64,000 bases of DNA, from positions 119,667,849 to 119,731,848 of the forward strand of contig NC_039359.1 in the NCBI RefSeq assembly GCF_003573695.1, written 5' to 3'. Below, in pieces: positions 5,799 through 46,800 of this stretch. A model generated the notes under the pieces. It did not search any database and had not been told where the DNA came from. It was given only the letters and a program-made list of their open reading frames with translations. Source of the DNA: Papaver somniferum (taxonomy: Eukaryota > Streptophyta > Magnoliopsida > Ranunculales > Papaveraceae). Numbering within the stretch: the first letter of the stretch is position 1; every line of letters starts with the position of its first letter. The translations under genes were made by a program, and so were the position numbers.

Positions 5799-8700
5799 AT
5801 GGGTGTAGTTGTATTGGTCTTTCTCTGTGTTTTAGTTATTCAGTTATTATTGAATCCTTTTGTAAATGGGTGGACAAAAGATTGCATTGCTAGTAAATTT
5901 ACATATTCGAGGTCTTCAGACCAAGAAGACGTGTTTTACATTAATGGGAACAAAGTAGGAAAGGAGTCTTTCTGCAAAGCTCTTGAATACTGCTATCAAA
6001 CTGTGATTTTATTTGATAGCATCTCCGGGGAAGAACCGGGAGGAGGAGGAGCTGGAAGGAAGCATTGTGACTTCAAAATTCCATCAGGTATATATTTCTA
6101 TTGGTTTTTTTGAGTATTTGAGTGTGATTGTTCTAAGGTTGCTATGAATATGAAGTACAATATTTTAGTGTTTTGTAATGTGTATTAGATGACTAGTTGA
6201 GTTAGAATTACAGTGTCGATTTCATTAATTCATTGTTTTGGATTTTATAGTTGCATCATTTTTTGAGGTGGTAATCTGGTTGATCATATAGTGAATGTAT
6301 CTTTGTGTCTGTGTTGGCAGGAGGTCTGCCTCAAAAGGGTAGGAGAAAGTTCTTGTTGGAATCAACAAGAGACATAGCCGCAGCTAATCAGGCCGATCAA
6401 AAGAAAACATCAGCCGAAGAAAAGCATAGTGGAAATACTTTGTTGACCACCAAAACAGTAGGGATGGCAGTAGCTGGGATGTTCCTTCTGTGTTGCAGTT
6501 TTATTTGTCCATGCTTTCGCTCAAGAAAGAAGGACATATCTGAAGTCGGCCTAACCAAAGACCATAGTACCAGTGAGTCGAAATTGCTAATTTTCCCCCT
6601 TTACAGTATTGCTTTTGTGTTGTATGCAGTATTGGTTTTACTGTCCGATAGAACATAGGGAGTACGTAAGTTGTTATATAATACTGTTTGACTCTGGAGC
6701 TGATTCACCTTATAGTAGGACATTGTATAGGCACATTACTTTCATCAGGAAATGAGCTTTCTACCAGGATATGATAACAAAAATTAATGTCAGTAGTCTT
6801 ATTTCTTATTTCTGTATTAGCCAAGAACGCATCTGATATTTTACTGGAGTGGCTTCTGAAGCTAATGGATATATTTTTAGTGTAAACACTGATGGCAAAA
6901 CTTTCAGTGTTTGGGTTGGTTTTGTTTAGAAATTAATTGTGAAAATGTTTTTTTTGGAGTTTTTCTTTTGACTGTTTAAAAGACGTAAATCTATTTGGAA
7001 CAAATCTCATTTTTGTGTCTCCCTCTTTATTATTGTCAGCTACACTCTCTGCATAAATCTCAGATGTTTTCATGTTCGAAATTCCATTGCATCTTTTTAT
7101 ATGATCTTTAACCACTACTAGGTTACACTTCTTTTGCATATTTTGGTTGGTTTCATGCGATTCAACTCAACTTACACCAATTCAGATTCTTCTGTTCTCT
7201 AATGTAATTCTTCTTTTTTATCTGATGTGGCACTAGATTCAACATCCTCACTGGAAGGAAGTACTTCTTCTGAAAAACTACCAGGAAGCCCAGTTCGCAT
7301 GCCAGCCAGCCCATTTAAAGTGCCACCTAGTCCTTCTCGATTCTCAATGTCACCCAAATCGAGTGAAATTGGATCTGTACACCTAAGCATGAGTCAGATA
7401 ATAAAAGCTACACAAAACTTTTCCCCATCTCTACTGGTAGGTGAAGGAGGATTTGGAACTGTCTATAGGGCTCAGTTACAAGATGGTCCAGTTGTTGCTG
7501 TTAAACGTGCAAAGAAGGTATTTACCTGTTACATGATAAGTGCTTGTTGTCTTCCTCTTTATTGCTAGATTTTGGTATTCTTAAGTTTTCTGTATCTAGT
7601 GGAAACCGCTGCTAGTTTAACATAAGATAATGTTTGATATGCTAGACCTTCAAATCTCCAACCGTTTTAAGAGTAGGTTTAACAAAATCAATATATGGAT
7701 TGAAAGTTCTTTAAACCAGCAGTGCAGTCAATACACACATGTCAACTTGAAATGTGACATTTTTCATAACCATCTTTTCTGATGCCGAAAATGTTAAGAA
7801 ACAATCACACTTCTTATTAATCCCCCTTGCATTAAAACTGGTAAAAGCTAAAAAGGCATCGTTAAGGATATCAAGGAAGAAGTACTACACGTAGTAGGAG
7901 GTTGGGACATGTGAAAAAATTTCGAAATATTGTGTGCTAGAGTAAGTTGGTAGAAGAGCTGTCATAGTTTTAATCCTTTTCCTTTTTTACTGGAAATAGA
8001 GATAGGATTCTTAGATGGTCAAGATTTGCCAAAACCTGGAGCAGGTGCCAGTTCCCCCCCTTTTTTTTTGGTAAATCCAAATTGCATTAAAAGATAACTA
8101 TAGAAAACTTTCTCCCTCTTTCTAGTTTACGCTTCGGTTTTCTAGCTGGAAAATTTCTAGGGTGCAACTGCACTCGTAGTATAAAGGATGGAAGCGCCGA
8201 CATTACGATGTATCTTAAGAATGCTTACCATGTTCCCTTATTAGCTTGAATTCATGTTATAGTATTGCATATCAGACTCCATACTTAGTGGCGTAGAGTA
8301 AAGGACACCTCCTTGAATTTGAATGCATCCTCAATAAATCACAGTACAGGATGGGTGCTGTGGCAGTGGTCAGTTTTTCTGTAAAACAGGAACGAAATTT
8401 CCTTTGGCATTTTCTTCTCTGATTGTTCAGAGATATTCTACTACAGGACTATAGAATCTAAGCAACTTCGGCTTGGTGACTGTCACACATTCAGCAAGCC
8501 ACAAGTCTGGCCTTGTATTCTGTTGTACTTGCAGGTTATCAATTGACCTTATTATTCCCTTCTGATCCTACTGCATTAGTAAATAGCTGAAAGGATCTAA
8601 GTGATGAAAGTCCTGGTACCATTTTGGACAAGATTTTATGTTAACATTTGTTTATTAAGAAATCCTCAATACTTTAGCAACCAAAACATATTATTTCTTA

Positions 8701-13672: not shown

Positions 13673-13799
13673 TAGATATTATTTCCTTCATCAAACCACT
13701 CATCTCTACTCATTTAATAGTTTGTAAACATTCATCCTTAAAAGTGCGTGGCAACCATTTACAGTCCGTGCAAAATTTAACACCAAATTCAATAAACAA

Positions 13800-14270
13800 G
13801 TACTACACTGTAAAAAAAAGGGTCTCCTGCTGCTTACGTTTGATGATGAAATCGCGTTGCATATAGCGATAGATAATGAACGGTGGAGTTTTGCACAAGA
13901 GCTTGTGAAACTCATGACCCCTGAAACCCAGGAAATGAAGGATAACGCAAATTGTACAGAACTTCATGGAGCTGCCTTATATGGAAATGTCAAAACTGCC
14001 GAGGCAATAGTAAGAAAGAATCCAAAACTTATCCAGATGGGCGATGATAAAGACCTAATACCACTCCAAACTGCTATTATATATATTTCAACTGGACAAA
14101 AAGAGACGTTAAGTATCTTTAATATGTGACTAAGCCTGAACACCCAAGTCCATTATCTGATACATATGGTGTTGAGATGTTGTGAAAGTGCAATCGAATA
14201 CGGATTCTACGGTGTGTTGGAAAAACTAATAGTCAAAAAAACCTGCAGACCAACAATCTCTCACTGCATC
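13800..14270 (+). pseudogene. Captured fragment of an ankyrin-repeat (ACD6/ITN1-like) gene
   Basis: From about 13806 the frame reads LLLLTFDDEIALHIAIDNERW, then ELHGAALYGNVKTAEAIV and MGDDKDLIPLQTAI, which are ankyrin-repeat consensus motifs (ALHIA..., LHGAALYGN...) typical of plant ankyrin-transmembrane proteins. The open frame ends with a TGA near 14127. Further ankyrin-family sequence (HPSPLSDTYGVEML, then AIEYGFYGVLEKLIVKK) continues to about 14265 in shifted frames with a stop, so the copy is broken by at least two frameshifts. No promoter, start or C-terminal membrane part is present. It lies inside the TGCATAAC element between the array and the G-poor block, as expected for a transduplicated host gene piece. 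Function is unlikely. Confidence 0.8.
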
Positions 14271-15142: not shown

Positions 15143-15940
15143 CGTATAAAATTACATTCAAACATTAAGAAGGCTTGGTGGTACATTTAGCCATTCACCT
15201 AAGTTTTTAACAATTCTAATGTATTTAGCTGCAACATGAGATACAATAGTAAAATTCCTTTTAAGAAATTCAACCTTAGCTTAACTGAATCCATTAAATA
15301 AATGATGACATTCATCTAAAATGGTACCATTAAACCAACAAAGCTAGTTATTATTAAAGTTTAAATAATCTACTAGTGGCTTTGCATCACTGATGAGACA
15401 GACTCTATGTTTGTTCAGAGATTGCGCCCATTTTCCAGCTTCAAGTAAAGCATGACTCTTGGCCTCCTCAGCGTTCCTCGCTATTCCATGAATGAGTTTG
15501 CACCCAATAAAGGTACCTGAAAAGTCATACATCACAAGTCCAACACCAGACGGATTACGAAAATGTTGTACATCTCCTACTTCCTTCCCCCACTATTTTC
15601 CCCGCCTATGTGTCAAACATTTGTTGGTTAAATACAATAATAATGAGACCCCTTTCTAACCTCAATCCAGGGATCAAGGGTTAAGAATGAGGACATCTAA
15701 TGGGGGAAGGGAGCGGGGGAAATGTAGCACTTCCGGAAAGATTAGTATCTTTGTCATGGGAAGCCATCACAATCGACTAAGACACATTTAGTAGGTAGTA
15801 GATCCCTTAAAATATCATTGAAGTTCCTATTCACAAGTTGATTATTCACATTATTAATAGATGAGATTATAGGATTAAGAAATTCAGCGGAGTTTACAAC
15901 TAGCTTAAAAGCATTTTCTCCGTGCTAAGATATTTAAAGG
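15143..15940 (-). pseudogene. LINE fragment: RNase H-like C-terminal domain
   Basis: On the minus strand the frame (15535 down to 15344) begins MMYDFSGTFIGCKLIHGIAR and continues through AEEAKSHALLEAGKW and DAKPLVDYL, the RNase H-like domain that ends plant L1-type LINE polyproteins. Upstream (15770-15940) the frame reads LRDLLPTKCVLVDCDGFP, the start of the same domain (expected pattern VNCDGSF), then is cut by a small MITE. The piece joins in order to the zinc-finger part at 22000-22830 once the transposon at 15941-21999 is removed. It has stops and frameshifts and is dead. Confidence 0.8.
15561..15757. mobile_element. Small MITE-like insertion in LINE
   Basis: The left end (TACATCTCCTACTTCCTTCCCCC) and the reverse complement of the right end (TACATTTCCCCCGCTCCCTTCCCCC) are imperfect inverted repeats about 30 bp long. 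The block splits the LINE RNase H frame between DCDGF and SGVGLVMYDF. A target duplication is not clear, so exact edges are uncertain. Confidence 0.5.
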
Positions 15941-16174
15941 ACTCTATTGTTGGGACTTTAGGGGAGAGAGAATTTGGGGGCTTAAAATACTAAGTGAAAC
16001 CCAAATGTTATAGGGGGAGATCAGATGTATGTAAAAGTTTAAAAATACCCTCTATAATTTTAATTTATCCCCATTCTACCCTCTCATTAACTTCCTAATC
16101 TAATTAAAAAAAAAAAACTGAAAAACGGAAAAATCATTAAAAGAAAAAACCGTAGCCCCCATTCCTTCTTATTC

Positions 16175-16260
16175 TCCCCCTCCTCCTTCTTCTTCTTCTT
16201 CTTCTCATATTCTTTTTTCATTTTTCTTCTTTTCTTCTTCCATTCTTCGTTTTCCAACGA
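16175..16260. repeat. CTT/TTC-rich microsatellite
   Basis: A TTC-rich simple-sequence tract upstream of the plant-mobile-domain reading frame. In this position it may be part of the leader of that gene. Confidence 0.7.
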
Positions 16261-16314
16261 TTAATCGTCGATTCAAAAAAAATTCTTCGTCGATTAAACT
16301 CATTCTATAAAACC

Positions 16315-19300
16315 ATGAAACCTAAGGAACATTTAGTCCAATCTTCGTCGAATCAACCACCCACTGAAGCAGAGAAACCAACTTCATCAAATGAAGTAGA
16401 AACTGAAGATCAAGAAGAAATGAATGAAGGAGATGCAGCAGCCGCCGCGAGTCCTGATATGACAGCAATAAGGTATGAATTTCAAAACCCACTCTTTATC
16501 TAAGCGTTTGACTGATTATTCTGTTGGTTTTGAGAATTTTAGGTCTGAAAAAAAAAGTTTCTGAAACTGATTACGGCTAGGAGCTCTTTTATTCCCATCC
16601 ATTTATATGTTACACGGTTGGGATATGGTTAAACACCCAACCGTTTGTCTGATTTACGGTTGGGATATCTTTGAACTCCCAGCCGTAATACATGCGTTGC
16701 ATACGAGATTCAGAAATCCTATCCGCAATAAGTTTTATACGGCTAGGTTATTCCTAGCCATATATTCTCATGTGTTCGAATTTTTTTAGCGGTAATAGTT
16801 ACGTCTAGCTCCTTCTGTTCGAAACTGTGGTTCCTGACCGTCATATTAAGTTTCCCAGCCGTTTATAAATTACGACTTGGAATTTCCTAGCCGTATATAG
16901 TCATATGCTGAATATCAAACCAGTTGTATATACACGTATAGGTGTTCCCATCCGTTATTTGTATTTCGGATGGATCGCTAATTTAGTTTCTCAGCCGTTT
17001 TCGCTTTACGGATTAGAGTTTCCTAGACGTTTGTTTTACGGATAAATCGATTACTAATTTTCCCATTTGTTATGTTTGTTGCGTCTTGGTTTATCCAATT
17101 ATCCTAGCCGTTTTAGTTGTTACGGTTTGGTTGTGTTAAAATATCCCAGCCGTTTTTGCTTATATACTTTGGGTTTTTGGCTTTGAATAGAGGAAAAGAA
17201 AAGAAGAAGAAAAGATCACAAGAAGTAACACCTCGTAGTGACCCGACTCCGCAACCTCGTCATGCAAAATCATTGGGTGCAAACGCAAGGAATGTAAGTG
17301 CAATTGTGGCTGCTGGAGATGGAGATGGTGGAGATGCAAGTGGATTTGTGGATGTTGGAGATGGAGATGGAGGTGTTGGAGATGGAGGTGTTGGAGATGA
17401 AAGTGTAATTGTGGATGTAGGTGGTGGAGATGCAAGTGTAGTTGTGGCTGCTGGAGATGGAAGTGAAGTTGGCAGTTCTAGTGGTGCTGCTCTTGATAAA
17501 GGTAAAGCAGTGGCTAAGAATGACAAGAAGGATGGAAAGAAGAAGTATCCACCAAAGGATAATGCAAGAGACATCATTGATGCCATGGAGTTTTTACCTA
17601 AAAAGAAGAATGGGAGACCTTGGGGTTCGCCAAGAGATCGTTCCGTCTTGATTGGTTAGGAGTCATCATAGGCTACTAGAGTCTGTGCCGCAAAGGTAAT
17701 AAATCAAATTTAATATATGTTGTTTTCAGTTTATTGTGGATATTCAATCGTAACAACCAAAATTTTATATTATTTGTAGTTTCCTGATAAAGCGGTTCCT
17801 AAACTAAAGCACCAACAACCAAGGTTTTGGCCGTTGGAGGGTGAGCATCCAGAGCATCCAGATGTGGTAGCTTTGGTAAAAGCTTTGGGGTTATGGTCCG
17901 GAATCGAGGCGCTGTAGAAGTCGTATGATTTTGTGACAGTTTGTACTTTTAGAGAAAGATTCTGGCTCGAAACCATGAGTTTCCAACTCCTATTCGGAGA
18001 GATGACTATGACTCCAGATGATGTGAAGGAAATCAACGGTCTTTCTTTTGAAGTAAAGGTTGTGTATGAGGGTTTCAACAGTACTCTACCTTATGAAGAG
18101 CTTTATGTTTTGGCTAATCAATGTCTTGGATGGAGCAAAGATCAAGCGGAAGAAGAGTTTGGGATTGGTTATGGAGCCCCTCCCAGAGCTAAAAGGGAAA
18201 TTAGAGAAGCGGGCGAAGATTATGAAACAATTAATAAGTCAAGGAAGATTAACCTGGTTCGTCTGAGGGAGCAGTTTGAAGATTCTGACCGTAAGACCAG
18301 GAATGGACAGATCGTGATGGACGAAGAAAGAGCTAGACATACGGCTATAGCTTACTTGTTGCACGCTCTTGGGACCGTCTTTTTTCCAGATTTCTCAGGA
18401 AATAAGGTCAATGCTTGTTCTTTGCAGTGGTTGAAGACTCTCAGTCGCGATCCGGAAAAAAAAGAGGTTCCTAGGTACTCGTGGGGCACCGCCCTCCTTT
18501 CTAGTGTGATGGATAATCTTTGCAAAGCTTCTAGGTGGAACATAACACAAATTACGGGTTGTGTTGCTCTTATCCAGGCATATTTTTGTGTTAATATAAC
18601 AAATGTTGGTTTATTTTACTTTTATTTTACTTTTCTGTTAATTGATTAATTTTTGTTCCGTAGTCATGGGTTTACGACCATTTCAAATTCTTGAGGCCTA
18701 CTCAGGATAAAAAATGGCCTCTAGAAAAACCTACAGGAGGAAGATACCCCTTTAACGGGACCCAACACAAGGATAAGGAGAACGAAATGGTCGAAATGAG
18801 GATAAAATTGGATGCTTTGACAACTGATGATGTGAACTTTGATCCATATTTGAAACTTGATGCGGATGGAGATGAGGAATTTGGTGATAGAGTATTTTCT
18901 AATGTGGCGACCTATACGGGACCTTTGTTTAATTCAATCGGGTTCGTCATTTTGGATCCTCGTAGAACGCTCCGCCAATTAGGTTTTGCCCAGAAAATTT
19001 TACCTTAAGAATCTCGTTTTCCACTGAGCGTAGCCAACTCCATATTTAAAGACAAAGATGTTAGATTGAAGTATGCAACTGCAATAGCTCTGTCGGTCGA
19101 AGATTGGAATGCTCGTTCCCAACCAGCAAACCAAATGAGTAGAAGAGCTCTTGAAGCTGCTCATGGGACATCCGAAGTGGATGCCAATTAAATGAAATGA
19201 TATCAAGAATGGGCTCATCCTTATGTGGAAAATTTGGATCCCGAGGCGCAGAGATATTTGAAGAAAGCGGCGAAAGAGAGTTCAAAATCAGCGTACGAGA

Positions 19301-19902
19301 TAAATGAACAAAATGAATGGGAGAAGATGGTGGTACGTATACTACTAATTATGTTTATAAATGTTTTTTTTTTGTTGATTACCTATGAATAAGTTTATTT
19401 GATATAAAAAATAGGTTGAACGAGTTAATTGGGTGTCCAAGGACATCACCTGTATGATTGATTCGAGTGAGTAGTTAACCGTCCCTGAACTGAGATTACG
19501 TCGAATCGAGTCCAAGGCATAATACTCCATGAGAAATGAGGTTTATATCCTCAAGAAGATGATCGATCAAGGATAAATAAGAGGTCTAGTTATCCTTCTT
19601 CTAGCGACGACTCGGATACTCCCTCCCGTGAGAAAGCTCCATCAAAGCAAGGAAAAGGCGGCAAAAAAGGAGGCCGTGCTGGAACAAGTGCTCAAGCTGG
19701 ATCAAGTGCTCGAGGTGGAAAAAAAGAAGGCCGTGGTGGAACAAGTGCTGCTCGAGGTGGACGTGGTGGAGGTAAAAAGGCTCCCAATCAAGCTGGTAAG
19801 GGAAAAGGAGGTAAAAAGGCTAGAGTTGTAGAACCAGTTGTTGAACATGACGATTTGGATGACTTTTTACAAGAGTCTTCTGGGGAGGAATCAAGTGAAT
19901 GA
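16315..19902 (+). pseudogene. Transposon-borne plant-mobile-domain (MAIN-like) protein gene
   Basis: Exon 1 is 16315-16472, exon 2 17191-17695, exon 3 from 17780 to about 18580, followed by further exons to TGA 19902. The protein starts MKPKEHLVQSSSNQPPTEAE, has a Lys-rich patch, a Gly/Asp/Val repeat (GDGDGG words, 17300-17460) and then the plant mobile domain: RERFWLETMSFQLLFGEMTM followed by TPDDVKEINGLSFE (from about 17945), with the usual W-x-Y-x-HF motif after the next intron (about 18665). It ends in a Gly/Lys/Arg-rich basic tail (about 19640-19840) and an acidic end (DDLDDFLQESSGEESSE). Stops at about 17656, 17668, 17914, 19006 and 19188, and a frameshift near 19575, kill it. Such domains occur in host MAIN/MAIL proteins and in plant transposons; here the surroundings favour the transposon form. 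The biochemical role is unknown. Confidence 0.75.
16560..17155. repeat. Hairpin array ACGGTTGGGA/TCCCAGCCGT inside intron 1
   Basis: Modules such as ACGGTTGGGATA, about 9-12 bases, CCCAACCGT repeat through the first intron of the plant-mobile-domain gene, separated by 10-50 bases. Cores vary (GGCTAGG/CCTAGCC, GGCTGGG/CCCAGCC), but the two arms of a module tend to match. Confidence 0.85.
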
Positions 19903-20040
19903 CAATCTACTCGCTTTTTTCATGAATATTTTGTTATCTAAGCCTTTGACATTTTACTGTTTTCGTTCTTTGGTTAAGGATTGAGATGGATGGATTTTTA
20001 TAACTTCGCATTTACGAATTAATGTTAGTCTTTCAACATC
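19903..20040. other. 3' region of plant-mobile-domain gene
   Basis: AT-rich sequence after the stop at 19902 and before the second hairpin array, probably the 3' UTR. Nothing else is seen. Confidence 0.3.
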
Positions 20041-20054
20041 ATTGTGTTTAATAT

Positions 20055-20655
20055 TGTTTTTTTCAGGCATTTTCGGCTAGGTCGTAACTTCACAAAACCT
20101 AGCCGAAAATTCCTATAAATGTTGAAAAATAAGCTTTCATAGCCGTAAAACTGAAAACGGTTAGAAACTGCCAGCCGTAAGTTCCCTTATGGTCAGGAAA
20201 CCTATCCGCATGCTGTTTACGGTTGGGAAAAACATAGCCGTTTTTTGGTCTATATTACCTGAACTACAATGACTCATGTTTTCGGATAGGTGTCCAAGCC
20301 GTGCCATAATGACGGTTAGGTTCTATATCCGTGAATGTGTTTACGTCTTGGTCGACCTAGACAGTTCCTAGCCGTTACACAGGTTACGGTTCGGAAACCC
20401 ATCTGTAGCCGCTAACGGTTAGGACTTTCCCAGCTGTATAGTATTCTGGTAAACCACAAAAAAAGGCTCTTAGAAACGGCTACATATCCATGCCGTAATT
20501 CCCTCCACGGACAAGAATCCCATCCGTTTATCTGACTAAAGCAAAAAATCAGGTTTACGGCCAGGAACCCCAACCGTAACTCTGGCAGACCACCAACTCT
20601 GCAGGTCATATGGTATTACGGCTGGGTATGCCTTGAATTTCCCAGCCGTAAGTAT
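20055..20655. repeat. Hairpin array ACGGCTGGGA/TCCCAGCCGT, second block
   Basis: About a dozen inverted modules of the family seen at 16560-17155 (for example GGCTAGGTCG...CCTAGCCG and ACGGCTGGGTAT...CCCAGCCGTA). It separates the two genes of the element. Confidence 0.85.
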
Positions 20656-20828
20656 CTAAAATTTCACTTGTACCACTTCAAATTGGCTAGTTTTTTGAAT
20701 TTTGAAAAATATATCCGTTGGAAGACTGATCTATAGAAGGTACAAACTCATTTAAACTTGAAATAATTCAACTACCTCTATATAACCACCCATTCCAAAT
20801 CAAAATCACACCTTCTACATCAATATTC

Positions 20829-21255
20829 TCTACCAGAACTCCAACAAACTCAATACAATGTACTCCCAACTTCACATTGGAAGAAGACTTATCTCTTTGC
20901 AAAAATTTTATATTATGCTATCCAAAGAAGGGAGATGAACGAAAGAAACGTGGTTTACCAAGTCAATCGTATTGGAGTAATATTTTCGAGAATTTTTGTA
21001 GTGAAACAGGTAACACTAACAATCGCGATGGGGTTGAATTGTATCTTCGATTTTCAGACATACACAAAAAAAGTGGAAGAATATATGGCTCTACGTCGTA
21101 TGTGCAACCAACTTCGACTTAGAGGTGAGACTGAGAGAGAAGTCGCAGCTCAAGCTAAGAAATAATGGAGAAAATGGAAAGGTTATGATTTCAATTTGGA
21201 AGCTCAATTCGCCATCATCAAAGACTTCTTAATACATCGAAAGGGATGTTATTAA
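20829..21255 (+). pseudogene. SANT/trihelix-like protein with NAM-associated-type end
   Basis: The frame from about 20829 reads NFTLEEDLSLCKNF, SYWSNIFENFC, then RDGVELYLRFSDIHKK. After a +1 frameshift near 21060 it continues as KKVEEYMALRRMCNQLRL and EREVAAQAKK, a stop, and WRKWKGYDFNLEAQFAIIKDF to TAA at 21253. The pattern (acidic start, Leu-Cys segment, W-x-x-IFENF, then K-G-x-x-F-N-x-E-x-x-x-x-I-x-K) is that of SANT/Myb-like DNA-binding proteins with the NAM-associated C-terminal domain found in many plant DNA transposons. No ATG is evident in frame at the start, and at least one frameshift and one nonsense mutation are present. A DNA-binding role, perhaps on the hairpin arrays on either side, is inference. 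Confidence 0.6.
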
Positions 21256-21384
21256 AACCATCTTTGTAATAGGGATATATCAAGCATTTAATGAGTCTTA
21301 TTATGATATAGTTAGTGAATATATTAGTAATTTTCAGTCGTATTAAGAATTCATGTTGAATCACAAAAATCCTCAACTTTCAAA

Positions 21385-21610
21385 TCTAATTACGGCCGGG
21401 AATGTTTTGTAAACCCATCCGTTTTGCAGACTCAGGTTATTCAGGGAAGAATAACGGCCAGAAGTTCATAAATTCCTGTCCGTTTTATGTAATTGCGGCT
21501 GGGAGTTCCTTATTTCCCAACCGTTTTCTGCTGTTATGTCTGGGAATTTATAATATCCCAACCGTTGTGTTTATTATCGGCCAGGTCGACAAGTTTATCC
21601 AGCCGTTATG
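21385..21610. repeat. Hairpin array ACGGCCGGGA/TCCCAACCGT, third block
   Basis: Modules TACGGCCGGGAATG...CCCATCCGT, ACGGCCAGAAG...CTGTCCGT, GCGGCTGGGAG...CCCAACCGT and CGGCCAGG...CCAGCCGT lie between the SANT-like gene and the right AT-rich end, mirroring the left block. Confidence 0.82.
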
Positions 21611-21999
21611 GCAAAAAATACCAGATTTTTTTCCAAATTTTCGACGGATTTGAACTGATAAAATTGATGTGGGGAGTTGATTATAAGGTTATCTTGAGTT
21701 TTGTGATAAAGGATTTCGTTATTTGTCTTCAAAATTTGTCAAAAATTTTGTCAAATTTTTTCACCAAAATCACCATTTTCCCTTCTTTAAAACTTAAAAA
21801 TATCATGTTTTGATTTGTATAGATTAATGTTTTCATTAGCCTAATCGATTCACTAAGAATGATTGTTAGCTTAATCAATTTAATTAAGGGTAGATTAGAC
21901 ATTAGAGAAAAATATAGATAAGGGGTCATATAGGTTGTTATTTCATGACCCCAAAAAACCCCTAAAAACCCACCCTTTTAAGCCTGAACAATAGGATTC

Positions 22000-22830
22000 T
22001 ATTTAAAAGCTTTATTTTGAAAGATGTGAAAACATCTTTCTCTCCATATAGACGATTGTGAATACTGCCAGGGCCTTGTCCTTTAGATGAGTAACATATA
22101 GTCATTGGATAATCCAATCTCTAATATTGAGATTCCTGTTGCAGTCTTGTGTAATAAGATTACTATAAGGTGTTGCAGACCATACACATCTCGCAAAAGC
22201 ACAATGCATAATAATATATTCAGCACACCAACCCCTAAATTACACATATAACAAGTAGAATCATGATTATTTTATCTACATTTTATCTATTAAGGAGCAA
22301 CCTAGACGGCTGAGTATTTTCATGACACTTTCGTAAAAAAATTTAAACTTTAAGAAGAATATTTAACCTCCACAAATCTTTATAGATAAAAGTGTTAGGG
22401 TTAGCACTATGCATGAATGCAGCATAACCAGAAATGACCTTATAAGACGATTTAAACAAAAGCAAACCATTTTTACCATATGACCAAATAAGTCTATCAT
22501 GACAAACATAGGAGGTTCTCAAACTAAGAATTTTCCGAGCATTATGACCATCTCAACTTTCCAGGTATTAGTGTCTTTGTCTATAAAATTAGAAACAAAG
22601 TAGTTTGGATTAGGTTCAGCTACATGAAGAGGTCGAGTGGCATTAGGAAACCAATTGTCTTGAAAGGCTAATATGTTATCACTATTTCTAAAGCTCCAAA
22701 CCTCCTAGTGAGAGTTATTCCTAATAAAATATAGACATCTAGCTATACTTTTCCAAACATAAGAACCATCTTTTTTAGAAAAAAATAATTTTTTTGACAC
22801 GATAAGCAGTGATTAAAGGGCTCCTAACCC
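22000..22830 (-). pseudogene. LINE fragment: zinc-finger region after reverse transcriptase
   Basis: On the minus strand the frame includes CYMCNLG and, one frame over, HCAFARCVWSATPYSNLI followed by RNLNIRDWII, the C-x2-C...H...FAR-x-VW zinc-binding motif (zf-RVT) that sits between reverse transcriptase and RNase H in plant LINEs. Further upstream (22830 side) comes GSYVWKSI, which normally precedes it. The order with 15143-15940 is correct for one LINE split by the 15941-21999 transposon. Several stops and frameshifts are present. Confidence 0.75.
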
Positions 22831-23559: not shown

Positions 23560-25124
23560 GATGGTGGGTTGGCTCTTTTGTAGAAAGATGGATTAGGTGT
23601 CAAAATTTTGCATACATCCAGTGATATGATGCATTTAACCATTTGTTCTCAATTACAAGAAAAAAGATGGATGCTTTCTTGCTTGTATGGTTATCATCAC
23701 AAAAAAGAAAGGGAAGAGCAATGGAAATTCATTCAGAAACTTGGAGAAAATCTTTCAACCCCTTGGGTCATTTTGAGAAATCTCAACATTACCCTACACA
23801 CTTTTCAAAATCAAAGTTTCAGCACCAATTTCTTCTCCTTCTTATAGAATTTTTCATGACACCATAGATCACCATAGTCTAAGAGGTATTCCTTTCATTG
23901 TCTCTCCATTCACCTAGTCAAATCAAAGAAATTAAAGAAGAATGTCAGAACCAGAATTGACATAGCCCTGGCAAATAATAACTGGATCATTACCTATCCC
24001 AATTCAGTTATAAATATCCTCCCCTCACATGAATATGACCATGCCCCTATACTTCTACACACTCAATCAACACCCAAGCAAAACCAAAGAGTTCAAAGAT
24101 TATATTAAGTCTGGATCTCACATTCCACCTGCAAAGAAGTGATTGAAGAAACTTGGAATAGTAATGAGAACAACAACATGAATGTTACAGAAAAACTATA
24201 TGCAACAACAAAAGCTCTGGGAAATTGGAGTCACCATGTTTTTGGTCATGTCAACACAGAAATTAAAAAGATTCAGAACAAATTCAAGATAAAAATAAAG
24301 TAACCAAGATATTGATACAATCAAAGTTCTGGAAACAGAGTTAAATTCTTTGTATGATAAGAAAAGCAGCAATTCAATATCAACAAGAAAGAGAAAATCT
24401 AATAAAGAAAGAAGACAAAAATAATAAGTTCTTTCACTCTAAAGAAAATTACAGAAGGAAAAGGAATCATATAGATATTTTGATGAATGAAGATGGGAAA
24501 TAGATGTCAACCAAGGAGGAAATTACTTCTTTGCTACAGAACACTTCAGCAATATCTATACTTCTTCAATTCACAATATAGATTTAGAGATCATTCAGCT
24601 CATAAGTCCTTGTGTAACTGAAGAAGAAAATCACAAGCTAACTCAAGTTCCAACTGAAGAAAAAGTCAAAGAAGCAATGTTCAGTATCAATGCTTGGGCT
24701 ACACCAGGACCAGATGGATATCAAGCAGGATCTTATTGACACACTTGGAGCATAATGGGATTGGAGGTAACAAACATGATACAAGATTTTTCACTCATGG
24801 TCATTTTCCTAGCAAGATAAATGAAACCTTCCAAATTCTTATTCAAATAAAAAGAAAAAATTGTGATCAAACCAAATGAGCAGAGACCTATAAGCTTTTA
24901 TGCAATATTACTTATAATATCATCACAAAGATTCTAGCAGTCAGACTAAAACCCATACTGCACAAGATCATATCCTCATGACAGGCAGCTTGCGTTCCAG
25001 GTAGAAATATATATGATAATGTTATTATTGCTCATAAGATGATGCACTATATGAAGACTACTAAGGCATATCAGGGAGTTGTGGGCATCCAGCTGGACAT
25101 GGCCAAAGCTTTTGACTGAATAGA

Positions 25125-25514
25125 TTGGGATTTCTTGCAAGAAATTATGAGTCATTTGGTTTCTCACAAAAGTGGTGTCATATAATTCATCATTGTATAA
25201 GCATAACTAGAATCTTTATTCTTGTTAATGGTTCACCGATGAAATTATTTTATCCATCAAGAGGGCTCATGCAAGGTGATTCAATATCTCCATATTTGTT
25301 TATTCTTTGGATGGAAGGATTCAGTAGATTGTTTACAAATACTGCTAATGAAAAAATTATTGAACAAGTCATTCCAGCAAAAATGGGACCAACAATATCT
25401 CAGTTGTTGTTTGCAGATGACTGTATTCTGTTCACTAAATCCACTGGAAGATCCATCAACAACTTAAAGGATATAATTCAAATATTACTTCTTCTTCTTC
25501 TGGCCAGATGGTGA
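25125..25514 (+). pseudogene. LINE reverse-transcriptase core fragment
   Basis: The longest open piece of the RT domain (129 codons). It contains the template-handling motif GLMQGDSISPYLF and the polymerase box FADD (second Asp pair of the active site). The first catalytic Asp lies upstream in the frame QLDMAKAFD, which ends in a stop codon (TGA) just after it. Confidence 0.85.
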
Positions 25515-42856: not shown

Positions 42857-43099
42857 TCCCATGAATAATCTGTATTATCTTATGTTAAAATGAAAAAGCC
42901 TATGTTATCACTTTTCCATAAAAGAAAATATGTTTTATATATTTTATTACTTTTAACTCTTTTAATTTATTTTTGTTTATCTATTTTTTTATTTTTTAAG
43001 CTTGTATTGTTTTTTGTTTTATTTTGTCTATTTGAACGTTCAAATTGGTCTAACACTAGATCATATTTGAATTTAAAATCGTAAATATCTCTACAGCTA

Positions 43100-43640
43100 G
43101 AAAATTGTGAACTTCTAGGCGTAATTCTATTTTTAAAATATAACTTTTCTTACAAAAACATAATTGTAAAAGTTTTTATTGTCAAGAATCTGTATCGTCA
43201 AACTGTCTGTAAGTAGCTCTGCAATCTAGGAAAAATTGTAAATATTTTTAGGACTACGTCTTAATATCCAAAATCTAGTCGTAGGGGTGTTATTTTTTAA
43301 CTTACATCTAGGATTTTTGTGATAAAATATTGGATTTTGGAAATGTAATTATGGTTAGGAGTTCATCTTTCCTAACCACGAAGATTAAAAAATACTAACC
43401 TATAGTTACAAATTCACCATTTTTTGCCCGTAGAGGTAGTCACGGCTAGGAAATTTAAAACACATCCTACCCGCATTTGGGTACAAAAGGAAAAAAAAAA
43501 CAATAAGAAGAAAAAAAAGAACTATCACTAACATTTAATTAGAGTTAATTAAGTTCATCAATACAAATTAATCGAGAATAGTCCAGCCATTATCAAAAAT
43601 ATATAGATAAGGGGTTTCACTTTACTACTCAATGATCCTA
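43100..43640. repeat. Diverged ACGGCTAGGA-type array and element end
   Basis: Contains modules like ATGGTTAGGAG...TTCCTAACCA and CACGGCTAGGAA...ATCCTACCCG, then AATTAAGTTCATC...ATATATAGATAAGGGGT, which resembles the right end (ATATAGATAAGGGGT) of the 15941-21999 transposon. Probably the right end of a related, older element. Confidence 0.55.
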
Positions 43641-44599
43641 TTTGGTCATCTTGTCCCATTCATTTTTCAAAGCTATGGTATGAATATCGAAGAAAATTCT
43701 TGTTGCCACTCAGAAATTTGTCTTCCTTAATTTGTAACTTCAAAATAGTCATGTTCAAGAGGAATTCAAATGGTACCTCATTGTACAGTTCATTCCTGCT
43801 AGAAACTCATTTGCCTTGTTGGACGCCTTGGAAGTTGTTTCAGTACTGGTGGGCTAGTACAGTAATTTTGAAACACAAAAAAAATACCATTTCAGTCATT
43901 TCAATATCTCCAGATTCTCTGCATGGCAGAACCCCCCTCCCCCTCCCCCACTCCCACCCCCTCGGCAAAAAATGCAGCAGTCTCCACTCCTCAACTTTCC
44001 GTTATAAGTAGTGTTCCATTTTTGATGCCGCACAAATAAAATCTAAGATATTTGCAAAGCAAAAGAAACCCTTAAACAAATAACGACTTTTGAGATTCAA
44101 AGGAAACTGTAAGTGATAACTGATCATCTCTTTTGGCATAATCATTTCTTTTATTATAGTTTTATCATTCGTATTTTGATTTTGATTGTATTCTTTTTTC
44201 TTTGTTTGTTCAGTCCATCCAGATCCGGATTCTTAGCTCTCTAAGTTGAAAGTTTTGGTGCAATATGGGGGTTATGGGTATGAATGATCTTCCATCAAAA
44301 AATTTTGCCGAATATATTCTTTTGTTTACATGCTGATTTAGTTTTACCATGGAGAAATGTCATTAGGTATCTCATTAAGGCCCTTCATAAAAAATCTCAA
44401 ACCCCTGAAATAGCTTTCCTTTTAAATCTAAAAGGAAAAAAGATTTTATTGATTTCGGTGGGTAAAAAAATCTAACAAAAAATTCAAATGAGGTTGGAAA
44501 GATTTCATTAAATTTTATTGGATTGTCTCCTAGAAAATATTCTCTGCTATGTATAAACGAATTTTACAATGTTATTTTTGTTTCTATTTTATCTGCTGG

Positions 44600-44950
44600 G
44601 CACCTTTATTTACTATCAGAAAATTAGAAATCGGTGAATGTTCTTATTAACCATTAAACATCCTGAAGCAATACTTTATTTTAGCTACTCGAGATCAACT
44701 CATCCACTCGGCAACGTACTGGATATACATGGGGAGGAAAAAATGATATATTTTATGGGAACCCCTATCACTGATACGGGGTTTTTCAAAAAAGATGTGA
44801 AAAATTCAATGCCTTCAAAAGGTTATTGTTGTCGTAGGCGCATGATCTGCAGATTTCAATGATGAAGTTTTACGTTTGATGGAAGTCGATGAGGTCAAAG
44901 ATCAGATAAAAATTAAACATGGATGAAGTTTAACGCAAATTAAATAGCTA
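44600..44950 (+). other. Left-arm-specific segment with unrecognised ORF
   Basis: A 74-codon frame (44638-44862) includes HPEAILYFSYSRSTHPLGN and VLDIHGEEKMIYFMGTPIT. This block is absent from the right arm of the inverted repeat, so it was inserted or captured later. I do not recognise the protein, and it may be chance. Confidence 0.25.
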
Positions 44951-45624
44951 ATATGGTATATCTCTTTGATTTGCGCTATACTCTCCCTCTCGTTACTCTC
45001 GTAATAATATTTTAATGTCATGTTTTAAAAACCTTTAAACAGTGTAAAAGACTTTTTTTACTCCAATGTTCAGACTTATGTTGCTCTCTTCCAAAGTCTA
45101 CTTTTGATTGCTTAAAAAAACATTCCTAAGATAATAAAGTTTTCTTTACTCAACCAGTTGGTGGGTTCTGACAATGGGCTCATGGGTACACGAGTTAGAA
45201 ATATGTGAGTAAGAAAGATAAAAAAAAAAACGTGATACTTTGATAGAATTATGCAGGTGTTCTACGTCATAATGAAAATAAAATACCAAAAATAACTTTG
45301 TCCATAACAGAGTAAGTACGGAAGTTTCTGACAACATACGTAAAAGCTAACACAAATCTAGGGCATCTATCTCTATAAAGCATTTCTTTGCAAATTATGG
45401 GATATCTCACTTCTGTTTGTTTTATTATCTTTTTTCTTTTTCTTAAATGGTAAGGTTGTTTGATTTATTATCGATCAAATAAAATGAAACAAACATAAGT
45501 GGAATACCCTATAATTTGAAAGAAAAACTTCATATAGATAGATACTCTATATTTCCGATGGATTTGATGTATGTGGTTAGAAAACTATCTTACCTTACTA
45601 ATATAAATAAAAGAGGTCTTTTTA

Positions 45625-45850
45625 GTAGGAGACCCCCCAAATTACTATGTTTTCCTCATTTTTTTACATATTTACATAAATGTCATTATTTTAAAAATTG
45701 ATCAAAATTTTTAAAAACTTAATATCTTTCAAAATATACATCGGATTTTTGTAAAATTTATACATTTGAAAAGCTCTTTCAGTTATCTATGTAACGAGTA
45801 CAAATAAGAATAGTAAATTTTTGTTTTACACAAAAAAAATTCATTGCTTT
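45625..45850 (+). mobile_element. Left-end fragment of TGCATAAC-family element
   Basis: GGAGACCCCCCAAATTA, then a segment with TAACGAGTACAAATAAGAATAG and AAATTTTTGTTTTACAC, parallels the left 300 bases of the elements at 12851 and 35038. The palindrome array itself is missing. Confidence 0.6.
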
Positions 45851-46499
45851 CAAATTTAATATTGTTGGATTAGCAAAATTCAAGCATGTGCATCACACAT
45901 GTGTTCTTACTAGTATGTATAAAGTTATTTTGGTGTTTTGTTTTAATAATGAGATAGAACACCTACATAATTCTATCAAAGTCTCACGTTATTGATTTTT
46001 TTTTTCATGCTCACATATACCTAACTCGTTTATCGGCGAAGTATTGTCAGAACCCCATCAAGTGGTCGAATAAAACAAACTTCATTCCTTGGGTAAGTTT
46101 TCTCAAGCAATCAAAAGTAGACTCTAAAGAGAGAGCAACAAAGTTTGAACGCTGAGATAAAAACAAGTCCTTTACACTGTTAAAGGTTTTTAAAACATAA
46201 AATTAAAATTATTATGAGAGTAGTGGGAAGAGGGTCCATCTACCGCAAATCAAATGGATAATACAAGGGTGCTCAACGAATTAATTAAGAGACAATAATG
46301 ATGTTATAAAATAAAAAATCATATAAAAAGAATATGTTTTTGGAAGACAACTCAATAAAGTTTAATGAAATCTTTCTTAAGCTCATGTCAGTTTTTGATT
46401 GCGTTTTTTTACTGAACTAAATCCAGGAATTCTTTTTTTAGATTTTCACAAAATCGTGTAATCACATCTACAAGCTTTTAACTATAGCTTAGTGTTTTT

Positions 46500-46800
46500 C
46501 GATCTTTAAGGTATAGGATTTCCAAAATCTAACATCTCGTCACAAAACTCCCGGTCGTAAATGGTTATTCCTAGCCGTAAGTTAACAAATAACACCTTTA
46601 CGACTAGGTTTTGAATATTCAGACTTAGCCGTAAAGATATTCCAATTGTTTTAAAACTACAGTTAGGTTGATGATACAGATTCCTAACCATAAACACTTA
46701 TATAGCTAAGAATAACTACCTATGGCTATATGCCTAGGTTTTTTGTGAGTTAAATTAAATTTTGAAAATCGAATTACGGCTAGAAGTTTATCATTTCCTT
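46500..46800. repeat. ACGGCTAGGA-type hairpin array in right arm
   Basis: Modules such as GGTCGTAAATGG...CCTAGCCGTAAG and ACGACTAGGTTTTG...CTTAGCCGTAAA, diverged relatives of the arrays at 16560 and 20055. Short ORFs over it are artefacts. Confidence 0.65.

What the first reader, a model, noticed from the sequence alone, without database searches (positions are those of the whole stretch)
15941..21999. Transposon carrying a plant-mobile-domain gene plus a SANT-like gene, framed by hairpin arrays
Seen: terminal repeats sharing CTATTGTT, a 9-of-10 bp target duplication, two plus-strand genes and three blocks of ACGG...CCGT hairpins, all inserted in a LINE whose frame closes across it. Known: plant mobile domains occur in host MAIN/MAIL proteins and in transposons, and NAM-associated/SANT proteins accompany some plant DNA elements. 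Inference: this may be a two-gene transposon family in which the SANT-like protein binds the arrays and the plant-mobile-domain protein acts in mobilisation or silencing escape. I saw no DDE transposase.
Basis: partly seen in the sequence, partly recalled or inferred. Interest (0 to 1): 0.82.

Follow-up and report, generated by a model that had tools for sequence, protein, structure and literature searches.

The report
Two-gene satellite of a poppy MULE
A decayed jumping gene in what is evidently the opium poppy genome carries two regulator-like genes and arrays of sites that look protein-binding, but no transposase; another element with the same ends carries the transposase, so it looks like a two-gene dependant that moves with borrowed machinery.

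Summary
The element is real: 15939-21999 (6,061 bp), a decayed copy of a multi-copy two-gene family, evidently in Papaver somniferum. Of 20 other copies fetched, 20 have plant-mobile-domain (PMD) sequence; the 14 with both ends also have the SANT-like gene. This copy has no Pfam transposase. But a 5,087-bp element with the same terminal repeat encodes a MULE transposase (PF10551, E 2e-27), without PMD or SANT. The 'hairpins' are about 50 copies of one motif, TCCCAGCCGTWA, mostly alternating in strand, spaced mainly in steps near 10.5 bp, nearly all in noncoding DNA; paired arms are no more alike than other sites, which favours protein sites over hairpins. The same arrays sit in the transposase element and in short gene-less ones. 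Best reading: a non-autonomous MULE family, moved in trans, whose two proteins probably regulate array-bearing elements (VANC-like anti-silencing is the leading guess). New variant of a known kind.

The parts
15931..15938 (.). left target-site duplication TATTTAAA (8 bp)
   Evidence: exact match to 22000-22007; same layout exact in 9 other copies
15939..15955 (+). left terminal repeat (decayed copy of GAAYCCTATTATTGGGG)
   Evidence: comparison with the fetched copies; 501 exact places of the 17-mer genome-wide, reversed control 0
16315..16472 (+). PMD gene exon 1 (start codon at 16315)
   Evidence: P0002 residues 1-53 align at 74%
16570..17156 (.). array block 1, inside intron 1, 21 motif sites at score 8 or more
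17191..17695 (+). PMD gene exon 2 (stops at 17657 and 17669)
   Evidence: splice phase and P0002 residues 53-92
17780..18577 (+). PMD gene exon 3, core of the plant mobile domain (stop at 17915)
   Evidence: PF10536 E 4.8e-15; 72% to P0002
18664..19332 (+). PMD gene exon 4 (stops at 19006, 19189, 19198)
   Evidence: PF10536 E 8.1e-8, 32.2 bits, just under its cut-off of 34.9; 67% to P0001
19415..19902 (+). PMD gene exon 5, stops and a frameshift near 19570, then a basic Gly/Lys/Arg-rich tail
   Evidence: no relative covers this exon, so its limits are inferred
20070..20652 (.). array block 2, between the genes, 23 motif sites at score 8 or more
20860..21255 (+). SANT/Myb-like gene (frameshift near 21075, stop at 21163)
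   Evidence: 51% to P0003 over 99% of the query; start codon agrees with other copies
21389..21609 (.). array block 3, downstream of the SANT-like gene, 9 motif sites at score 8 or more
21983..21999 (-). right terminal repeat (decayed)
22000..22007 (.). right target-site duplication TATTTAAA
43099..46799 (.). separate inverted-repeat element with the same motif in both outer arms (3 and 6 sites at score 10 or more; 0.06 and 0.05 in shuffles)
   Evidence: no Pfam match in six frames; ends not defined

Best explanation
This is a dead copy of a transposase-less (non-autonomous) MULE family in opium poppy that carries two accessory genes, PMD and SANT-like. Shown: one 17-bp terminal repeat and 8-bp duplications unite three classes of element: two-gene, transposase-bearing and short gene-less ones; all three classes bear arrays of one mostly alternating, roughly helically phased motif. 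Inferred: the FAR1-type MULE transposase made by the second class acts in trans on the shared ends. Inferred and less sure: a DNA-binding protein, most likely the SANT-like one, binds the arrays as duplex sites, and with the PMD protein keeps array-bearing elements expressible or accessible, in the manner of VANC on VANDAL elements. Because the arrays are shared, such an effect would also benefit the transposase element and the gene-less ones.
Confidence: 0.55

Rival explanations
1. The arrays are subterminal binding sites of the MULE transposase itself (through its FAR1-type domain); the PMD and SANT-like proteins have some other role.
For: The transposase element has 27 sites, 14 before and 13 after its gene; 4 of 5 short elements keep arrays; 17 of 20 sampled ends have them.
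Against: In the two-gene copy the arrays lie 0.4-1.9 kb from the nearer end, around each gene, one inside an intron; 3 of 20 ends have no site within 1.2 kb; a 0.77-kb element has the repeat but no site (it also lacks a matching duplication).
Confidence: 0.25
2. Passenger genes: PMD and SANT-like are host fragments captured once (Pack-MULE style) and carried along without function.
For: Codon positions are nearly flat between copies in the PMD exons; omega for exon 4 and SANT not significantly below 1. MULEs often capture genes (PMC6446971, section 3 read).
Against: Spliced genes with no majority stop in the 553 codons tested, and omega 0.33-0.41 in the PMD core between subfamilies; intact SANT-like relatives; both genes kept together in 14 of 14 copies with both ends.
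Confidence: 0.13
3. PMD plus SANT-like protein are themselves a new transposition machinery, and the MULE transposase elements merely share or borrow the ends.
For: Two-gene elements are numerous (40 matches scored out of 272 and 373 first-look candidates for the two ends) and no transposase was found inside the copies tested. The layout recalls PIF/Harbinger (transposase plus Myb-like protein; recalled).
Against: A standard MULE transposase with the same ends exists. PMD is a known accessory of MULEs and Gypsy elements that have their own enzymes (PMC6446971, PMC5418596; passages). No usable PMD model.
Confidence: 0.05
4. The arrays act as RNA or DNA hairpins (small-RNA source or cruciforms), not as protein sites.
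For: Blocks 1 (as RNA) and 2 (as DNA) fold better than shuffles (z -5.4 and -5.8).
Against: Block 3 (as DNA) does not (z -1.2). Neighbouring arms are no more alike than other sites of the block (7.54 versus 7.70 of 11, p 0.85), so no sign of compensation; spacing follows steps near 10.5 bp.
Confidence: 0.07

Closest known systems
VANDAL elements of Arabidopsis (VANA, VANB, VANC)
   Same: A MULE group with accessory genes; short repeated motifs in noncoding parts; targets shared with other elements (VANC6 motifs occur in AT9TSD1, said to be unrelated; PMC5735166, passages).
   Different: Full-length VANDAL21 carries transposase and accessories on one element (PMC10398659, passages); here they are on separate elements. 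No DUF1985 or DUF287 match. Motif differs; the array is mostly strand-alternating; duplication 8 bp, terminal repeat 17 bp.
MULEs with a PMD accessory gene (groups MUDR, MDR, MUDRAVI2, MULE-Solanaceae_1)
   Same: PMD beside a MULE transposase is common; MULE-Solanaceae_1 is listed with an unknown reading frame and an antisense PMD (PMC6446971, table passage).
   Different: There PMD sits with the transposase; here with a SANT-like gene and no transposase.
Pack-MULEs
   Same: Transposase-less, gene-carrying.
   Different: Two accessory genes, one with a constrained core, repeated in many copies, not fragments of many host genes.
PIF/Harbinger transposons
   Same: Two genes, one Myb/SANT-like (recalled).
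   Different: No DDE gene inside; 8-bp, not 3-bp, duplication.

Membership tests
MULE superfamily (as a non-autonomous member) | target duplication of 8-11 bp (PMC6446971) | tested here: met
   8 bp, exact in 10 of 15, at least 7 of 8 in 12 of 15; controls 1 and 10 of 240
MULE superfamily (as a non-autonomous member) | ends shared with an element that encodes a MULE transposase | tested here: met
   17-bp repeat on L046+L059, PF10551 E 2.2e-27
MULE superfamily (as an autonomous member) | MULE transposase inside the element | tested here: not met
   six-frame Pfam of this copy: PMD only above cut-off; tblastn with the partner's transposase over the 20 fetched stretches hits L010 alone, beyond its right end. 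Other kinds of transposase were not sought in the 20
VANDAL | VANA transposase on the element, VANC with DUF1985/DUF287 | tested here: not met
   no such Pfam match
PIF/Harbinger | 3-bp duplication and DDE gene (recalled) | tested here: not met
   8-bp duplication; no DDE match
hAT | 8-bp duplication; YARNG-type ends and hAT transposase (recalled) | tested here: not met
   duplication fits, but ends are GAAYC and the partner transposase is MULE
Plant mobile domain PF10536 | profile score above the curated cut-off | tested here: met
   102 bits, cut-off 34.9
Myb/SANT DNA-binding fold | sequence profile or fold match | tested here: inconclusive

The most novel reading that the evidence does not exclude
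A split MULE system: the transposase is carried by one element and a PMD-SANT regulator pair (its PMD core under constraint) by another, numerous, transposase-less element; both, and a swarm of gene-less relatives, are tied together by one terminal repeat and one phased operator-like array. The PMD-SANT pair is a sequence-specific anti-silencing device that arose independently of VANC, and gives the transposon-side PMD a testable target.
Probability: 0.3. Interest if true: 0.78.

Novelty: new variant of a known kind. Interest (0 to 1): 0.6.

Why it matters
What PMD proteins do for transposons is open; Ikeda et al. (PMC5418596, passages seen) call an anti-silencing use tempting to speculate on. 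This family offers a concrete target: a short motif in about 50 phased copies per element, a small candidate DNA-binding partner of about 135 residues, and gene-less elements that could serve as reporters. It would also show accessory functions and transposase carried on different elements that share cis sites, unlike full-length VANDAL21.

Tried and rejected
PMD as nuclease: model pLDDT 36, so no fold search was run with it. PDB sequence searches: P0002 none; P0003 only insignificant matches. Viral contigs: no relative of P0003 or P0002. Plasmid records: no match. Rfam: none in the window. Foldseek against viral models: none at E below 0.001. A 16.3-kb pair of ends (L054, L055) taken for a large autonomous copy: sites only in the first 2 kb, no PMD, SANT or partner-transposase match in either half, six-frame Pfam of L054 empty; L055 was not scanned by Pfam. 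My own early LINE frame fell with it. Genome searches with P0003, P0001 and PF10551 did not complete. Palindrome 43099-46799: no clear similarity of its ends to this element's ends. High CpG in the array blocks as a sign of hypomethylation: the SANT-like gene is as high, so dropped. Paper searches on PMD with SANT, MULE, foldback or Papaver: the rows listed name no such two-gene element in title or abstract start; one search found no paper with both Papaver and plant mobile domain. Only papers under open licences are held.

Rows dropped: of 39 other left-end matches I fetched the best 20. For the end sample I took 20 of the first 26 listed places on C1; the six left out were five in close pairs or clusters and one already known as a right end. 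Of the 17 sampled ends that were not two-gene, only 5 were read beyond 1.2 kb (L036, L037, L045, L046, L050); the transposase turned up in L036 and L046, not in the other three. I extended L036 and L046 because of their reading frames, so 2 of 20 is not a rate. Codon tests used 17, 15 and 15 sequences that covered at least 60% of the region. The 240 mismatched pairs include one copy (L013) whose right end is doubtful.
Full report
Where it lies. The window is G000:C2:119667849-119731848 of a 2.7-Gb assembly. It is evidently Papaver somniferum: the PMD relatives P0001 and P0002 carry that name, a fetched copy, L017, encodes the core of P0002 at 100% identity, and contig C6 has the same length, 180,516,484 bases, as the contig given for the P. 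somniferum protein P0006.

Anatomy of this copy. The element runs from 15939 to 21999. The PMD gene is read as five exons on the plus strand; the poppy protein P0002 aligns to exons 1, 2, 3 and the start of 4 and confirms the exon 1 to exon 2 splice around the intron that holds array block 1; P0001 covers the rest of exon 4. The gene is dead, with stops in exons 2, 3, 4 and 5 and a frameshift. The second gene, about 130 codons from 20860, has a frameshift and a stop; P0003 is 51% identical to it, and P0004 and P0005 are 53% and 49% identical to P0003; all three are uninterrupted proteins of 144-155 residues. P0006 is a poppy lipid phosphate phosphatase gene model with part of this protein at its start. 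Pfam finds PMD and nothing else above cut-off in six frames.

Ends and target duplication. Twenty further copies, the best-ranked of 39 left-end matches other than the window itself, were fetched at 10 kb each. PMD sequence is present in 20 of 20; the right end in 14 of 20; the SANT-like gene in those 14 and in none of the other 6. Counting the window, 10 of 15 copies with both ends have an exact 8-bp match, 2 have 7 of 8, and 3 do not match (L011, L015, L020); pairing left and right flanks of different copies gives 1 exact in 240 and 10 with at least 7 of 8. Exact matches to the 17-mer number 501 in the genome against 0 for the reversed pattern.

Arrays. A weight matrix trained on the element finds 52 sites at score 9 or more in the three blocks; first-order shuffles give 0.73 on average, 3 at most. 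The matrix was trained on these sites, so the excess is inflated, but it was then used unchanged elsewhere. Neighbouring sites alternate in strand at 41 of 50 steps (25.6 expected; none of 10,000 shuffles reached it), and same-strand distances cluster near 30-32, 40-43, 60-63, 72-74 and 80-84 bp, close to whole turns of DNA, with a few exceptions such as 35 and 50 (random spacings never gave such clustering in 20,000 trials). Tandem duplication of a unit could itself make such spacing. Neighbouring arms are no more alike than other sites in the block (7.54 against 7.70 of 11 bases, p 0.85), as expected for duplex protein sites and not for hairpins under selection to pair. CpG observed/expected is 0.96-1.4 in the blocks against 0.68-0.72 in PMD exons and other noncoding parts and 0.22-0.50 in the flanks, but it is 1.02 in the SANT-like gene too, and the motif contains CpG, so this carries little weight.

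The wider family. Pairs of exact ends led to five short elements of 0.77-2.1 kb: 3 of 5 have exact 8-bp duplications, 1 has 7 of 8, 1 none; 4 of 5 carry 10-19 sites, L030 none. They have no PMD, SANT or partner-transposase match, and their longest frames are 49-95 codons stop to stop; they were not scanned by Pfam. An end sample (20 of the first 26 places listed on C1; 1.2 kb inward) has 5-22 sites in 17 of 20, and none in L037, L045 and L050; three are two-gene elements (L035, L049, L051). L046 with its continuation L059 is a 5,087-bp element with both repeats (the right one with one mismatch), a MULE transposase domain (PF10551, E 2.2e-27), a FAR1-like domain (E 9.6e-4, under the cut-off), 14 sites before and 13 after the gene, no PMD or SANT match, and a 7-of-8 duplication (ATATTTTG/ACATTTTG). 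Its transposase is read in three adjoining frames parted by stops, so this copy is damaged too. L036 with L060 carries 91% identical transposase sequence and 32 sites in 4.2 kb; its other end was not found. Tblastn with the partner's transposase over the 20 two-gene stretches hits L010 alone, beyond its right end. The remaining ends were not read far enough to class them, so rates of each class are not known.

Selection. Between individual copies the three codon positions differ almost equally in PMD exons (0.133, 0.126, 0.152 and 0.124, 0.122, 0.126), much as in noncoding controls; SANT shows a mild third-position excess (0.087, 0.066, 0.103). Median pairwise omega is 0.60 for exon 3, 0.85 for exon 4 and 0.66 for SANT. 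Fixed differences between subfamilies, which should reflect the active lineages, give omega 0.33-0.41 for PMD exon 3 (Fisher p 0.0001-0.0009), 0.73-0.74 for exon 4 (p 0.30) and 0.58-0.63 for SANT (p 0.20-0.39); the third-position share is raised for exon 3 (p 0.04) and SANT (p 0.02) but not clearly for exon 4 (p 0.09); no majority stop in 553 codons. The groups were chosen after seeing the trees. So constraint is shown for the PMD core and only hinted at for the rest. Gene trees of the PMD and SANT parts group copies differently, which may mean exchange between elements.

Literature. PMD is a known MULE accessory (PMC6446971: section 3 and passages seen), was captured by MULEs twice according to PMC5418596 (passages), whose authors speculate about anti-silencing. 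VANC proteins bind short tandem motifs in noncoding parts of VANDALs, and VANC6 motifs also occur in an unrelated element (PMC5735166: passages; also PMC10398659 and PMC13317346: passages). The transposase-less two-gene layout and the alternating phased array were not found in the search listings named in Tried and rejected.

Mechanism. Most likely the MULE transposase of the partner acts on the common repeat. The arrays, almost wholly noncoding and present in all three classes, are best read as operator-like sites. The SANT-like protein is the natural candidate to bind them and PMD the effector, but the transposase is a real competitor for the same sites. Movement in trans I hold at about 0.85, SANT binding at about 0.5, anti-silencing at about 0.35; the combined statement is scored 0.55 because its weaker steps are marked as inference.

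Noticed in passing
window 43099-46799: Large inverted-repeat element (outer arms about 0.3 kb plus nested inner arms) with the same motif in both outer arms, probably an old relative without genes; ends and duplication not found.
   Followed up: partly
window 15580-15721: Short inverted repeat of about 140 bp in the left flank (16-19 bp arms, 79-88% alike), MITE-like.
   Followed up: no
P0006 (P. somniferum, lipid phosphate phosphatase epsilon-like model): An annotated gene model begins with part of the SANT-like protein: exonised transposon or annotation error.
   Followed up: no
L059 3427-3756 (-) and L036: Both transposase elements carry a further reading frame beginning MAAR..SGRLNPDSES at the end opposite the transposase; the L059 one has no Pfam match, nor have two other frames of L060.
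   Followed up: partly
L010 6325-7542: Between a two-gene copy (ends at about 5175) and the next one (left end near 8372) lies a MULE transposase 40-58% identical to the partner's.
   Followed up: no
window 13728-14129: Ankyrin-repeat frame, Ank_2 E 5.9e-7.
   Followed up: no
window 25116-25514: Reverse transcriptase fragment, RVT_1 E 1.1e-11.
   Followed up: no
L009-L028: PMD and SANT gene trees disagree on which copies group together, hinting at exchange between elements.
   Followed up: partly
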